This document shows, piece after piece, positions 1 through 3,404 of a DNA stretch of 64,000 nt (position 1 is its first letter; each line of letters opens with the position of its first letter). Position numbers and translations under genes: made by a program. The notes under the pieces are model-generated. The model made no database searches, was not told the DNA's origin, and worked only from the letters and a program-made list of their open reading frames with translations. The stretch covers positions 118,508,709 through 118,572,708 of the forward strand of contig NC_084830.1 of the NCBI RefSeq assembly GCF_033115175.1. Reading direction: 5' to 3'. The DNA is from Lepus europaeus (taxonomy: Eukaryota; Chordata; Mammalia; Lagomorpha; Leporidae).

Positions 1-524
1 GGCTTCACATTTACTATTATAGGTGGCTGCTGAATTGCTAATCCTATCCCTCCGGTCTCTGCCCAAGAACTCGGAAACTTTTCAATCCACTCAGGGGCTA
101 GTGAGGTTTTTATTTTTTCTTTGTCATTGTCATAGAGACGATGTTCATCTCTTAATTGTAAAGTCAATACCTGCAGAAGGCGCCCTCCAGAGTCCGTCAC
201 TGAGGCCCCTTCCTTCTGGAAATGAATCTGGGCTCCCACCTTAGATAGCAAATCTCTTCCTAATAATGGATACGGGCAGTCTGGTACTAAAAGAAATGAG
301 TGGGTGACCTGGCCAGTGGCTAGATCTACCTGTCGTTCTGTGGTCCAACGGCACATTTTTCTTCCAGTTGCTCCCTGGACGCAAGAAATTTTTGAGCTAA
401 GGGGGCCAATATTTTTGTTTAAAACAGAGTGCTGAGCTCCGGTATCCACCATAAACGTGACCGGCCTGCCTCCCACTCTCAGGGTTACCCGGGGCTCAGG
501 GGGAGGCTCCTGGCCCTGACCCCC
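1..524 (-). CDS. pol: Retroviral pro-pol, N-terminal part (protease and start of reverse transcriptase), cut by window edge
   Basis: The frame that follows the gag UAG stays open to base 1, about 174 codons. It has no start codon of its own, as expected for a product made by readthrough of the gag stop. The aspartic-protease active site appears as VDTGAQHS, with the DTG codons at 438-446. A flap-like region and the conserved LLGRDLL motif near 260-280 mark the protease C-terminus. The last visible segment (about 1-110, with PEWIEKFPSSWAE-type residues) matches the usual start of gammaretroviral reverse transcriptase. The protease processes Gag and Gag-Pol in the particle. The 3' part of pol is outside the window. 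No stop or frameshift was seen. Confidence 0.88.
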
Positions 525-527
525 CTA
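468..527 (-). promoter_or_regulatory. Gag-Pol translational readthrough signal: UAG plus downstream pseudoknot
   Basis: After the UAG (525-527) comes an 8-nt spacer (517-524). Stem 1 follows: 509-516 pairs with 492-500 through eight base pairs with one bulged A at 496. The loop 501-507 (GCCTCCC) is an exact 7-nt complement of 468-474 (read GGGAGGC on the minus strand), forming stem 2. This is the architecture of the murine leukaemia virus readthrough pseudoknot, which lets a few percent of ribosomes decode UAG as an amino acid and make Gag-Pol. Pairing was worked out by eye. Function is inferred from the family. Confidence 0.8.
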
Positions 528-2225
528 GTAATCGTCCTCTTCCCCCAGGGGAAGAACTGGAATGTCAGTCTCCTTTCTTCTTCTGGTGGTATTCTTGTTT
601 GGACAGTCTCTGGCCCAGTGTCCTCTTTCCTTACAGTACGCACACTGATCTCGTTCTACCCACGGTTTATTTCTGTCTCCCGGGTATTTCTTTGTTTGAC
701 CTCTTCCATAACCTGACCTATCCTGCCTATTAGATTCGTTTACTGCGGTGACCAAAATTTTAGCTAGTTCCCTATTTTTCTTTTTGTCTCTCTGATCTTG
801 TTCTTTTTGCATTCTTTCCTCTTTTTCTTCTTTAGTTTCCCTCTTATTAAAGATTCTCTCTGCCTCTTTTAGGAGGTCCTGCAATGTATAACCCTGTAAG
901 CCCTCCAGTCTCTGCAACCGTGCTCGGATATCTGGGGCCGATTGGCCAATGAAAGACATTATTACATCTGACTGCCGGTCAGGAGCCTGGGGGTCAAACG
1001 GGGTGTACATCCGGTATCCCTCCATCAATCTTTCTAGAAACCCCGCCGGGGTCTCCTCATTACCCTGAGTTATGGCACGTACCTTAGCCAAATTGGTGGG
1101 GCGTCTCCCTGCCCCTCTGAGACCTGTCAGGAGAATCTGGCGATAGAGACGAAGTCGTTCCCTACCGGCTGCCGTACTAAAATCCCAATCTGGTCTGGTC
1201 AACGGGAATGCTGCGTCAATCTCGTTTGGCAGTTGAGTAGGTTGACCGTTGTCCCCTGGAACATTTTTTCGAGCTTCCGTGAGAACTCGCTGTCTCTCCT
1301 CCGTGGTCAGGAGAGCCTGCAGAAGCTGCTGGCAGTCATCCCAAGTCGGTTGATGGGTCAAAAGAATAGATTCAATTAATCCTGTCAAAGCTTGTGGATC
1401 TTGAGAAAAAGGCGGGTTATGGGTTTTCCAATTGTACAAATCTGAGGCTGAAAACGGCCAATATTGCATCTGATTCCCCACCGAGCGAAGTGGGAAAGCC
1501 TGTGCCTCCCACTGGCCACCCTCACTCCCCCCTCCCCGACGCAAGCGCAGCCTGGCACCCATGGGGGTTGTACGAGCCGGGGGTTCCTCCCCCCTTTCTC
1601 CCTGCGTAGAATCCCCCTGCGTAGAATCTGGGGAAGGTGCCATAGGCTCTCTCGGGAGGGGTGCGTAAGGCGGTGGGGTGTCAAAAAGCAAAAGATCCTC
1701 CTGCCCGCCCGGGAGGACCAAGGGTTTCTTCGCCTTGTGGGAATCTAACTCCTTTAATGGGCAAAGGGCCGAGGCAGGGGCAACCAGCGAATTTTGCGCT
1801 GGGTCTTCCCACACAAAGATGTCAACTGACGGGAGCCCGCTCTGATCCGCGGGTTGCGGTTTTAAAGGTGTTACGGACGGGGGCGGGGCGGGTAAGGCAC
1901 CCGCCACGACCCGGTCAGCCGGGAGAAAGGGTTTTACCCATTTTGGGGGATATTGTGCCAGGTCTTCCCACACAAAGATATAGGGCACTTGATCCGGGTG
2001 CCCTTCCTTGCCTTCTCTGCAGACCTGGCTCTTCACCTGTAAGATAATTCGAGAGTCAAAAGTCCCATCCCGCGGCCACCCGATGTTGAAGGCTGGCCAC
2101 TCGGACGTACAAAAACTTGTCCAGTTTTTCTTCTGCACTCTCACAGACAAGTTTTGGGCCCGCTCCCGGACCTCTTTCCAATGATCTAAAGTAAGACTCA
2201 AAGGTGTAGTTAATTCCTGTCCCAT
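525..2225 (-). CDS. gag: Retroviral Gag polyprotein, intact 566-codon frame
   Basis: The ATG at 2223-2225 begins MGQ, giving the N-terminal glycine for myristoylation. The frame is open for 566 codons to TAG at 525-527. Domains: matrix about 1-105; a proline-rich p12-like region about 105-244 with the PPPY late-budding motif at 184-187; capsid from about 245 (PLRS) with the conserved QYWPFSASDLYNW start; a major-homology-like segment near 387-412; a charged Lys/Glu-rich coiled stretch about 459-490; and nucleocapsid with one CX2CX4HX4C zinc knuckle at 528-541. An in-frame TAA at 2250-2252 precedes the ATG, so no glycosylated Gag is encoded in this frame. Oddities are an internal repeat (IFVWEDLAQ at 83-91 and IFVWEDPAQ at 136-144) and a tandem DSTQG at 200-209. 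Gag assembles the particle at the plasma membrane. The open frame suggests a young or selected copy. Confidence 0.95.
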   Translation of the reverse strand: MGQELTTPLSLTLDHWKEVRERAQNLSVRVQKKNWTSFCTSEWPAFNIGWPRDGTFDSRIILQVKSQVCREGKEGHPDQVPYIFVWEDLAQYPPKWVKPFLPADRVVAGALPAPPPSVTPLKPQPADQSGLPSVDIFVWEDPAQNSLVAPASALCPLKELDSHKAKKPLVLPGGQEDLLLFDTPPPYAPLPREPMAPSPDSTQGDSTQGERGEEPPARTTPMGARLRLRRGGGSEGGQWEAQAFPLRSVGNQMQYWPFSASDLYNWKTHNPPFSQDPQALTGLIESILLTHQPTWDDCQQLLQALLTTEERQRVLTEARKNVPGDNGQPTQLPNEIDAAFPLTRPDWDFSTAAGRERLRLYRQILLTGLRGAGRRPTNLAKVRAITQGNEETPAGFLERLMEGYRMYTPFDPQAPDRQSDVIMSFIGQSAPDIRARLQRLEGLQGYTLQDLLKEAERIFNKRETKEEKEERMQKEQDQRDKKKNRELAKILVTAVNESNRQDRSGYGRGQTKKYPGDRNKPWVERDQCAYCKERGHWARDCPNKNTTRRRKETDIPVLPLGEEDDY

Positions 2226-2798
2226 GTTGGAGGGGAAAGGCAAGTGAGGTTAGTATATTAAAACACAGAAAACAACCACAAGACTCACAAATCACAAGAC
2301 TTCACAAAGACACTGCGCACAACACTGGAACGAGACCTGCGCGCCCTAATGAGACGAGACCTGCGCGCAACAAAACTGAAACCAAAACGGGAGTGGCTGC
2401 TGCCACCAGCTCTTCTCCCGGGAAAGAAACCCTACTGAATCCTAACCAGAGCTTCCGATGAGAGCGAAGCGGCTGCCACCCGCCACGCTCCCCAGGTAAG
2501 CTTAGTGATGGGAGCGAAGCGGCTGCCACCCGCCAGGCCCCCCCAGAATACCGCCAATGGAGCGTCCTCCAAGGGCCTGAGCCAGGGGTCTTGACACGTC
2601 TGTCCTTCCTACTACTGGCTCTTTTCAGATACAGGTCCTGCAGGCACAACCTCAGTAAAACATGAACCTCCGGTACGTCAAGCGCCCCGGGAAAAAATAA
2701 AAAAATCAACAAAATCAACAGAACACAAAAAAAAAACACTTAAAACAGCAAAAACTTACCTCCGATTGGAAAATGGAGCGTGGGTCTGGGGTCTCCAA
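2226..2798 (-). other. Proviral 5' leader (packaging region) with duplicated blocks
   Basis: This is the untranslated region between the primer-binding site and gag, about 570 nt, where gammaretroviruses carry dimerisation and packaging signals. A strong splice donor (minus-strand AG|GTAAGT, intron starting at 2759) lies just after the primer-binding site and would be the donor for env mRNA. Two direct repeats are visible: a 24-nt block at 2462-2485 and 2512-2535, and a 15-nt block at 2330-2344 and 2354-2368. The region is more GC-rich than its surroundings. Assignment of packaging function is by position only. Confidence 0.7.
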
Positions 2799-2816
2799 AT
2801 CCCGGACGAGCCCCCA
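2799..2816 (-). other. Retroviral primer-binding site, tRNA-Pro type
   Basis: Read on the minus strand, this is TGGGGGCTCGTCCGGGAT, the 18-nt complement of the tRNA-Pro 3' end used by most gammaretroviruses to prime minus-strand synthesis. It sits one base after the LTR end (…CCTACA at 2818). Confidence 0.95.
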
Positions 2817-2817
2817 A

Positions 2818-3404
2818 TGTAGGACCCCAAAAATTGGTGTCCTATAGAGAGAGACCCCCAGAAGCACGAATTCCAGTCCAACCGATGCAATAAAAGCAAG
2901 AGGAAGTTTATTACATCTGCGCAGATGGGCCAACTCTAAGCACAACAACACTCTCTGGTGCAGTGTGAGAAGAGAGGCGGCAATCATCAACCGCACAGCG
3001 TATTTAAGATTGAAAACCACAATATTAGCATATCTCCATAGCATGACACAAAGGTTCACAAGATAAACCACAGCATGACAAACCATCATAAGATGCATGA
3101 CAAACTTCCAGGGTGAGGGGACAGAAGACCTTGAGTAGGCATAAACACGGGGTCATCATGACCAAAAACTCAACATAGCTCCTAAAATAATTATCACATG
3201 CTCCATTATCTCATAAAAGCATTAGCACATTCATCACATGTTACAAGGTCAGCTAAAGTCTAGTTATCTTAAACAAAATGCATTTTGCAAGCCAAAGCAT
3301 TTTGCACAGAAGCAAAATATGCAGTTAGCTCAAGCAACTTCATTTTAACCCTTTCTATCTTAATTTTACATTCCAATTTAACCCCATCCTATCTTAATTT
3401 CACA
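2818..3404 (-). mobile_element. 5' LTR of the gammaretrovirus (U3-R-U5)
   Basis: The 3' boundary is firm: the minus strand ends in CCTACA at 2818, one base from the primer-binding site. A TATA-like TTAAATA lies at 3001-3007 and the poly(A) signal AATAAA at 2907-2912, so R would run from about 2975 to about 2890 and U5 from there to 2818. U3 contains three copies of gcatgaca (3041, 3073, 3095) and an imperfect direct repeat of about 33 nt near 3340-3404. The 5' boundary is estimated at the TGTGAAATT that starts at 3404. A start near 3370 is also possible because the same motif is duplicated there. No second LTR is in the window for comparison. Confidence 0.7.
2907..2912 (-). terminator. LTR poly(A) signal AATAAA
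   Basis: Minus-strand AATAAA about 90 nt downstream of the TATA-like box, in the R-region position expected for a gammaretroviral LTR. Confidence 0.65.

What the first reader, a model, noticed from the sequence alone, without database searches (positions are those of the whole stretch)
1..3404. Well-preserved endogenous gammaretrovirus downstream of GABRG2
The visible half has an LTR, an exact tRNA-Pro primer-binding site, a splice donor, a 566-codon gag with all expected motifs, and an open in-frame protease/RT start. Neutral ERVs normally gain stops and frameshifts within a few million years; none was seen over about 2.2 kb of coding sequence. This suggests a recent insertion, possibly polymorphic, in a lagomorph genome. 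Whether pol and env are intact cannot be seen here.
Basis: partly seen in the sequence, partly recalled or inferred. Interest (0 to 1): 0.88.

Follow-up and report, generated by a model that had tools for sequence, protein, structure and literature searches.

The report
Young hare retrovirus with gene-capturing relatives
A very recently inserted retrovirus sits next to a brain-receptor gene in the European brown hare; it entered by an unusual lopsided insertion, and some of its close relatives in the same genome carry copies of hare genes.

Summary
Window 1-3404 (minus strand) is the 5' part of an 8.14-kb gammaretroviral provirus 5.2 kb downstream of GABRG2. The host is Lepus europaeus, by contig-length matches. 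The 3' LTR was found: 0 of 587 differences from the 5' LTR. Gag (566 codons) and pol (1203 codons) are open, and Rfam recognises the gag-pol readthrough pseudoknot. Env is only a 359-residue ORF: receptor-binding domain plus a hydrophobic stretch, without fusion subunit.

(1) No 4-bp target duplication: a perfect 163-bp host duplication flanks the provirus and the U5 end keeps one extra T, so probably one end was joined by integrase and the other by repair. Of 18 relatives, 17 have 4-bp and one a 5-bp duplication. (2) The short Env is open in 8 of 9 long elements (focal included). (3) Of ten defective relatives, five carry C/EBP-epsilon-like and AP-1-like ORFs; five carry a full-length Env ORF, four of these also a C/EBP-epsilon-like ORF. 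I read this as a recently active family of complementing parts. Complementation, expression and polymorphism are untested.

The parts
3405..3567 (.). Right-hand copy of a 163-bp host duplication that flanks the provirus; the left copy ends one base before the 3' LTR, outside the window
   Evidence: 163/163 identical to the 3' flank
2818..3404 (-). 5' LTR, 587 bp, TGTG...TACA; contains a 34-bp tandem unit at its U3 start and AATAAA at about 2907-2912
   Evidence: identical second copy at G000:C5:118503972-118504558; repeat; polyA signal
2799..2816 (-). Primer-binding site (18 nt; complementary to tRNA-Pro, label recalled), one T between LTR and PBS
   Evidence: sequence read
2226..2798 (-). Untranslated leader, presumably with the packaging signal; 98-100% identical to the leader of 8 of 9 defective relatives compared (C12 lower)
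2754..2761 (-). Splice-donor consensus AG/GTAAGT
   Evidence: sequence read; use not tested
528..2225 (-). gag, 566 codons: MA, p12-like region with PPPY, CA, NC with one CCHC
   Evidence: Pfam and PDB matches; ORF
1903..2225 (-). MA part of gag: the nucleotide match to 8 of 9 defective relatives ends at 1903; over this stretch identity is already down to 88.5-90%
   Evidence: blastn ends; identities
1791..1820 (-). 30-nt duplicate of part of MA (1950-1979) inside the p12-like region, a 14-residue insert absent from the nearest annotated hare Gag P0004
   Evidence: (D4)
525..527 (-). gag terminator UAG, presumably read through to make Gag-Pol
467..527 (-). Gag-pol readthrough pseudoknot (Rfam RF01073)
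   Evidence: 68.8 bits, gathering score 67.7, E 7.2e-14
1..524 (-). 5' end of pol: protease and first residues of RT; frame continues outside the window to G000:C5:118505621
   Evidence: continuation, frames matched by coordinates
8599..8883 (-). Context: GABRG2 last coding exon (partial extent), stop codon 8599-8601; further exons matched near 12783-12938, 19067-19210 and 60935-60994

Best explanation
Shown: a very young gammaretroviral provirus of Lepus europaeus with identical LTRs, open gag and open pol. Inferred from its junctions: integrase joined the U3 end correctly, but the U5 end was not processed and was joined by host repair, leaving one extra T and duplicating 163 bp of host DNA. 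Shown: it belongs to a family with at least three element types on closely similar LTRs and, in 8 of 9 defective copies compared, nearly the same leader. These are long elements (gag and pol read fully only at the focal copy) with a short receptor-binding Env that ends in a hydrophobic stretch; defective elements with a full-length Env ORF, mostly also a C/EBP-epsilon-like ORF; and defective elements with a C/EBP-epsilon-like and an AP-1-like ORF. Inferred: the defective types are copied in trans by Gag-Pol from long elements and recombine with them during reverse transcription, as acute transforming retroviruses do with their helpers.
For: Age: 0 of 587 LTR differences; 14 of 19 LTR pairs of the family identical, the rest differing at 1 to 5 sites. 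Junction: 163-bp perfect duplication, a clean TG at U3, CA plus T at U5, where T is also the base between CA and the PBS. Of 18 other pairs, 17 have a 4-bp duplication and C5:65.78 a 5-bp one. Precedent: XMRV, 1 of 15 sites with a 273-bp duplication (PMC2857682); HIV and ASLV aberrant ends with large duplications (PMC5041404). Short Env: open in 8 of 9 long elements; dN about 0.03 and dS about 0.07 against the two most diverged copies. Gene capture: the C/EBP-epsilon-like ORF is contiguous where the hare gene has two blocks 375 bp apart; 37 of 38 near-full-length matches have no stop; median dN/dS 0.44, none at or above 1, in 105 of 120 pairs with dS above 0.05. Open frames are shared: Env of 646 residues from its first ATG in 5 of 5 env-carrying copies, AP-1-like ORF of 172 from its first ATG in 5 of 5. 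Shared replication: leader 98-100% identical in 8 of 9 compared, whereas MA falls to 88.5-90% in those 8. The LTR nearest to the focal one is from a gene-carrying copy (550/553; tree, 84% support).
Against: No expression, particle or protein data. Gag and pol of the other long elements were not read, apart from C11, which has an RT deletion. The C-terminal tail of the short Env looks nearly unconstrained: 13 and 14 nonsynonymous against 8 and 6 synonymous differences to the two diverged copies. Leader identity could partly reflect constraint on packaging, not recombination. dN/dS pairs are not independent, and copies were picked by similarity. One C/EBP-like copy (C9) has lost its start codon, and C12 shows neither a truncated-gag nor a C/EBP-like word. 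The extra T could be a non-templated base. Mutation rates behind any age in years are assumed.
Confidence: 0.72

Rival explanations
1. An older insertion whose LTRs were made identical by gene conversion.
For: Conversion between LTRs of one provirus is a known process (recalled). CpG in the LTR alone is low, 0.31.
Against: The flanking host duplication is also identical (163/163). 14 of 19 family pairs are identical, which conversion at every site would have to explain.
Confidence: 0.05
2. The 163-bp repeat is an assembly error, or a host duplication that arose before or after a normal integration.
For: Only one assembly was available and no reads could be inspected.
Against: No Ns in the left flank pieces L002 and L011 or in the window. 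The repeat ends exactly at the U3 end and starts one base from the U5 end. A normal insertion at the joint of a tandem repeat would leave a 4-bp duplication, which is absent: TGTT against TTAT.
Confidence: 0.12
3. The short Env and the captured ORFs are passengers: one damaged master copy was amplified inside germ cells and nothing selects for these proteins.
For: Many near-identical recent copies; the short Env lacks SU C-terminus and TM, and its tail is nearly unconstrained; the C/EBP-epsilon-like and AP-1-like ORFs show four-residue gaps near the basic region against PDB bZIP chains.
Against: Open frames persist among diverged copies: C/EBP-epsilon-like ORFs down to 79% amino-acid identity without stops, median dN/dS 0.44; short Env open in 8 of 9 with overall dN below dS.
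Confidence: 0.3
4. Each class spreads as an infectious exogenous virus that repeatedly enters the germ line, not by copying inside the germ line.
For: Full-length Env ORF in 5 of 5 env-carrying relatives (Pfam TLV_coat 573 bits in the one scanned).
Against: No exogenous hare relative was found; the one scan of viral contigs confirmed nothing. Long elements carry only the short Env.
Confidence: 0.2

Closest known systems
Endogenous gammaretroviruses of Lepus timidus and Oryctolagus cuniculus listed in Table 2 of PMC11341202 (section 6 with the table read)
   Same: Complete LTR-gag-pol-env elements in lagomorphs; the rabbit one has intact gag and env but defective pol
   Different: Found through a receptor-binding-domain query; whether they are the same family could not be tested. 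No captured genes or short Env are mentioned in the section read.
Murine leukaemia virus group
   Same: Gag layout, UAG readthrough with pseudoknot, single CCHC, protease, RT and IN domains
   Different: Window Gag is 51% identical to the MLV entry P0035 over 96% of the query; Env here is a 359-residue fragment
KoRV carrying BCL2L1 (PMC7910482, passages read) and classical acute transforming retroviruses (recalled)
   Same: Spliced host coding sequence inside a defective gammaretrovirus that can only spread with viral proteins from other proviruses
   Different: In the koala the six integrations had low coverage and were tissue-specific, and the authors think it may be exogenous; here many germ-line copies share the gene and older diverged copies exist
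Refrex-1, FeLIX and similar truncated Env proteins (PMC11019853, passages read)
   Same: Receptor-binding domain kept, fusion subunit lost
   Different: Those are mainly soluble; the hare protein ends in a predicted hydrophobic stretch and is kept across a replicating family
XMRV clone C-3 (PMC2857682, passages read)
   Same: Gammaretroviral provirus with a long target duplication, 273 bp, and one abnormal viral end
   Different: Cell-culture infection with a deleted U3 end; here a germ-line insertion with an abnormal U5 end

Membership tests
Gammaretrovirus-type (class I) endogenous retrovirus | MA, CA (p30) and single-CCHC NC in one Gag | tested here: met
   Pfam Gag_MA, Gag_p30, zf-CCHC; PDB matches to retroviral gag chains, some named Moloney MLV
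Gammaretrovirus-type (class I) endogenous retrovirus | Gag-pol in one frame separated by a read-through stop with pseudoknot | tested here: met
   TAG at 525-527, in-phase pol, Rfam RF01073
Gammaretrovirus-type (class I) endogenous retrovirus | tRNA-Pro primer-binding site | tested here: inconclusive
   18-nt site read at 2799-2816; the tRNA-Pro label is recalled and no tRNA was compared
Gammaretrovirus-type (class I) endogenous retrovirus | Protease, RT, RNase H and integrase in an open pol | tested here: met
   frames of separate pieces matched by coordinates
Gammaretrovirus-type (class I) endogenous retrovirus | Env with SU and TM subunits | tested here: not met
   359-residue ORF, TLV_coat profile positions 16-204 of 560 only; full-length Env ORF present in 5 relatives
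Gammaretrovirus-type (class I) endogenous retrovirus | 4-bp target-site duplication | tested here: not met
   163-bp duplication at this locus; 17 of 18 relatives have 4 bp
Replication-competent retrovirus | All genes intact and infectious | tested here: not met
   No complete Env at the focal locus; infectivity itself was not tested
Host-gene-transducing defective retrovirus (relatives, not the window copy) | Spliced host coding sequence in place of viral genes, between viral LTRs | tested here: met
   Contiguous C/EBP-epsilon-like ORF against the two-block hare gene; truncated gag and family LTRs
Host-gene-transducing defective retrovirus (relatives, not the window copy) | Altered growth of infected cells | not testable with these tools
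   No experiment possible
Refrex-1/FeLIX-type truncated Env | Receptor-binding domain without fusion subunit | tested here: met
   Pfam match to the N-terminal part of the Env profile and PDB matches to gp70/surface protein and FeLV receptor-binding-domain chains
Refrex-1/FeLIX-type truncated Env | Secreted soluble protein that blocks or helps entry | not testable with these tools
   A hydrophobic stretch near residues 300-330 suggests membrane anchoring instead

The most novel reading that the evidence does not exclude
Hares host a recently active, multipartite endogenous retrovirus. One element type supplies Gag-Pol and an anchored receptor-binding protein, another a full Env, a third two host-derived bZIP proteins. 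All are replicated through a shared LTR and leader, and a captured C/EBP-epsilon gene has been kept by selection as a lasting viral gene, not a one-off oncogene capture.
Probability: 0.4. Interest if true: 0.9.

Novelty: new variant of a known kind. Interest (0 to 1): 0.74.

Why it matters
Host-gene capture by retroviruses is best known from tumours and laboratory isolates (recalled). A germ-line family in a wild mammal, with many young and some older copies of a captured transcription-factor gene, would let one study how such a gene is acquired, kept and shared between helper and defective elements. Some of these loci are probably annotated as ordinary C/EBP-epsilon-like hare genes, which could mislead gene-family counts. 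The 163-bp duplication is a germ-line example of the lopsided integration that the papers I read describe in cultured cells.

Tried and rejected
Rejected: the idea that the LTR starts at 3370 (the copy with TGTA); the PPT side of the 3' LTR and other proviruses with 4-bp duplications place the start at 3404, and 34-bp units vary in number. Rejected: pre-existing tandem repeat as the cause of the 163-bp flanks (no 4-bp duplication at the junctions). Led nowhere: viral-contig scan with Gag, 43 pattern matches, none confirmed; bacterial promoter scan of the LTR and tRNA scan add nothing. The parent of the AP-1-like ORF could not be located, because the genome search with it did not complete; its JDP2 label is recalled, supported only by weak Fos-type matches (best E 0.0022; Pfam bZIP_1 E 0.023, below its cut-off) and a prothymosin segment. 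The genome search with the short Env likewise did not complete. Literature: among the papers listed by searches none describes, by title or abstract start, this family or a C/EBP-epsilon capture; only open-licence papers are held and only the top of each list was shown, so this is no proof of absence. Row C392 was read on the wrong strand and dropped.
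Full report
What is there. Window 1-3404 on the minus strand holds, in order, a 587-bp LTR (3404-2818), a primer-binding site, a leader with a splice-donor consensus, a 566-codon gag and the start of an in-phase pol. Pfam finds matrix, p30 capsid, one CCHC knuckle and protease. The best PDB matches are gag capsid, matrix and nucleocapsid chains, some named Moloney MLV, and a gag-pro-pol protease (other virus names behind these entries are recalled). Rfam places the gag-pol readthrough pseudoknot exactly at the gag stop. GABRG2 exons are on the same strand and its stop codon is 5.2 kb from the LTR.

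Which genome. The window is C5:118508709-118572708 of the held genome. The length of C5 equals the contig length recorded for a Lepus europaeus protein (P0005). The lengths of C19, C554, C373 and C637 equal those of four Lepus europaeus proteins (P0156, P0160, P0157, P0154). Two others, P0004 and P0161, name a length (117559561) that matches none of the contigs I saw; I saw only some of the 649. I take the host to be the European brown hare.

The other end. The second LTR lies at C5:118503972-118504558 and is identical, 587 of 587. With assumed rates of 2 to 4.5 substitutions per billion years the 95% upper bound on age is about 1.3 to 0.6 million years (the rates are recalled). CpG is weak support: 0.58 in window 1-3404 against 0.16 in the rest, but 0.31 in the LTR and up to 0.44 in a 3.4-kb stretch elsewhere. 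Pol is open from window 524 to C5:118505621, 1203 codons by coordinates, read in separate pieces, with RT, RNase H and integrase domains. Env is a 359-residue ORF: only positions 16-204 of the 560-position Env profile are matched. PDB matches are surface-protein and gp70 chains and the FeLV receptor-binding domain. A hydrophobic stretch lies near residues 300-330, followed by a short tail.

The flanks. Instead of a 4-bp target duplication there is a perfect 163-bp host duplication, 72% AT. At the U3 end the LTR begins cleanly. At the U5 end one extra T follows the terminal CA, and T is also the base between CA and the primer-binding site in the viral sequence. This is what an unprocessed U5 end would leave. 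Among 18 other LTR pairs 17 have a 4-bp duplication and one (C5:65.78) a 5-bp one. The passages read of PMC2857682 report 13 of 15 XMRV sites with 4 bp, one with 5 bp and one with 273 bp, the last with a damaged viral end. Those of PMC5041404 report large host duplications when integrase joins only one end. One-ended integrase joining followed by repair is therefore the best explanation; the T is suggestive, not proof.

The family. One search scored only the best 40 of 1418 candidates, so what follows concerns copies close to the focal LTR. It gave 19 LTR pairs, plus two single LTRs (C1 and C38) with matching 4-bp flanks, those of C38 in a simple AT repeat. 14 of 19 pairs are identical; the others differ at 1, 1, 1, 2 and 5 sites. 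Nine are long elements by LTR spacing; C11 lacks part of RT, and gag and pol of the other seven were not read. The short Env ORF is open in 8 of these 9, including the two with the most diverged LTRs (C454 and C20:58), and broken in C216. Against those two copies dN is about 0.03 and dS about 0.07 overall, but in the tail after residue 244 there are 13 and 14 nonsynonymous against 8 and 6 synonymous differences, which is close to no constraint.

Gene-carrying relatives. The other ten pairs are defective. For nine of them the 5' part was compared with the focal pieces (C6:93.7 was not fetched there): in eight the nucleotide match ends at the same place, window 1903 at the end of MA, and in C12 at 2177; long unmatched stretches follow. 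The truncated Gag ORF itself runs on into a p12-like part. Five copies (C5:65.78, C13, C20:14.97, C19, C10:125.67) carry a C/EBP-epsilon-like ORF of 223 residues (also read) and an AP-1-like ORF, 172 residues from its first ATG, open in 5 of 5. For the C20:14.97 copy Pfam gives bZIP_2 E 2.7e-9 and PDB C/EBP beta E 2.3e-13; its AP-1-like ORF has a prothymosin segment and a weak Fos-type match. The other five (C10:4.2, C6:93.7, C6:100.98, C3, C12) carry a full-length Env ORF, 646 residues from its first ATG, open in 5 of 5. Four of these five also have a different C/EBP-epsilon-like ORF; C12 does not.

Origin of the captured gene. The hare C/EBP-epsilon gene (named from its nearest relatives) matches at C13:51179643-51180593 in two blocks 375 bp apart; the captured ORF runs through that joint without a gap. 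Splice sites were not examined. In one search the nearest named proteins are C/EBP-epsilon-like of Lepus europaeus; hits named C/EBP-epsilon in other species are at most 59% identical over long alignments (120 of 417 hits were listed). In the hare genome the ORF has 120 matches. Counted by eye from the table, 37 of 38 near-full-length matches have no stop, with amino-acid identity down to 79%. Nineteen of these were fetched; one was read on the wrong strand and dropped, leaving 18 (one, C9, without a start codon) and 16 distinct ORFs. They give a median dN/dS of 0.44 in 105 of 120 pairs with dS above 0.05, maximum 0.86. The surroundings of six diverged copies were read: all six have an LTR match (68-87% identity) and five of six a truncated-gag and mid-region match; C554 has pol and env pieces instead. 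So the capture is older than the young copies and the frame has been kept.

Are the parts copied together? Nine defective copies were compared with the focal one. Leader identity is 98-100% in eight (in C12 89% in one half), and LTR identity is 93-99.5% in all nine. The adjacent MA is 88.5-90% in the same eight, with only 44 bases alignable in C12, and the next stretch 76-89% over short alignments. The two long elements compared (C10:21.48, C11) are 100% in MA. The nearest LTR to the focal one belongs to a gene-carrying copy. Template switching between co-packaged RNAs explains this best; constraint on the leader is an alternative for part of it. Together with the 4-bp (nine) and 5-bp (one) duplications of the ten defective copies, which point to mobilisation by integrase, trans-complementation by long elements is likely but inferred.

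What is known. PMC11341202 lists complete gammaretroviral elements in mountain hare and rabbit (section with table read). KoRV has captured BCL2L1, with six low-coverage, tissue-specific integrations (PMC7910482, passages). Truncated receptor-binding Env proteins act as entry blockers or co-factors in cats (PMC11019853, passages). The hare family combines these themes in the germ line. A quick Gag tree of the window and 48 of the 120 listed hits places the window Gag with a Lepus europaeus protein (SH-aLRT 99), beside two rabbit proteins (98) (MA 91/105 and CA N-domain 122/131 identical to P0004).

Limits. One assembly, no reads, no expression, no second hare. Copies were chosen by similarity to one LTR. 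The AP-1-like parent gene was not found because the search did not complete. The roles of the short Env and of the captured proteins are inferences.

Noticed in passing
G000 C5:65.78, C13, C20:14.97, C19, C10:125.67 (loci L003-L006, L046-L057): Defective relatives carry an uninterrupted C/EBP-epsilon-like bZIP ORF and a second bZIP-like ORF with a prothymosin segment (JDP2-like by recall; prothymosin tested in one copy).
   Followed up: partly
G000 C10:4.2, C6:93.7, C6:100.98, C3, C12 (loci L058-L065, L068): Second class of defective relatives with a full-length Env ORF; four of five also have a different C/EBP-epsilon-like ORF. C10:4.2 and C6:93.7 have identical LTRs and the same LTR spacing but different target sites.
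   Followed up: partly
G000 C103:99650-117708 and C634: C/EBP-epsilon-like ORFs in repeated series; on C103 starts are 4364 bp apart and the one interval read includes LTR, leader and truncated gag.
   Followed up: partly
window 3342-3404: 34-bp tandem unit at the U3 start of the LTR, present in different numbers in different copies.
   Followed up: partly
window 1791-1820 and 1950-1979: A piece of MA is duplicated inside the p12-like region of Gag, a 14-residue insert absent from the nearest annotated hare Gag.
   Followed up: partly
window 2457-2493 and 2507-2543: 37-nt direct repeat, 92% identical, 50 nt apart in the leader.
   Followed up: no
G000 C1:142052682-142053260 and C38:24920199-24920764: Single LTRs of the family with matching 4-bp flanks: probable solo LTRs.
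   Followed up: no
L052 698-1012 (minus): 104-residue ORF between the two bZIP ORFs of one defective copy, no Pfam match at E 0.01.
   Followed up: no
   Followed up: partly
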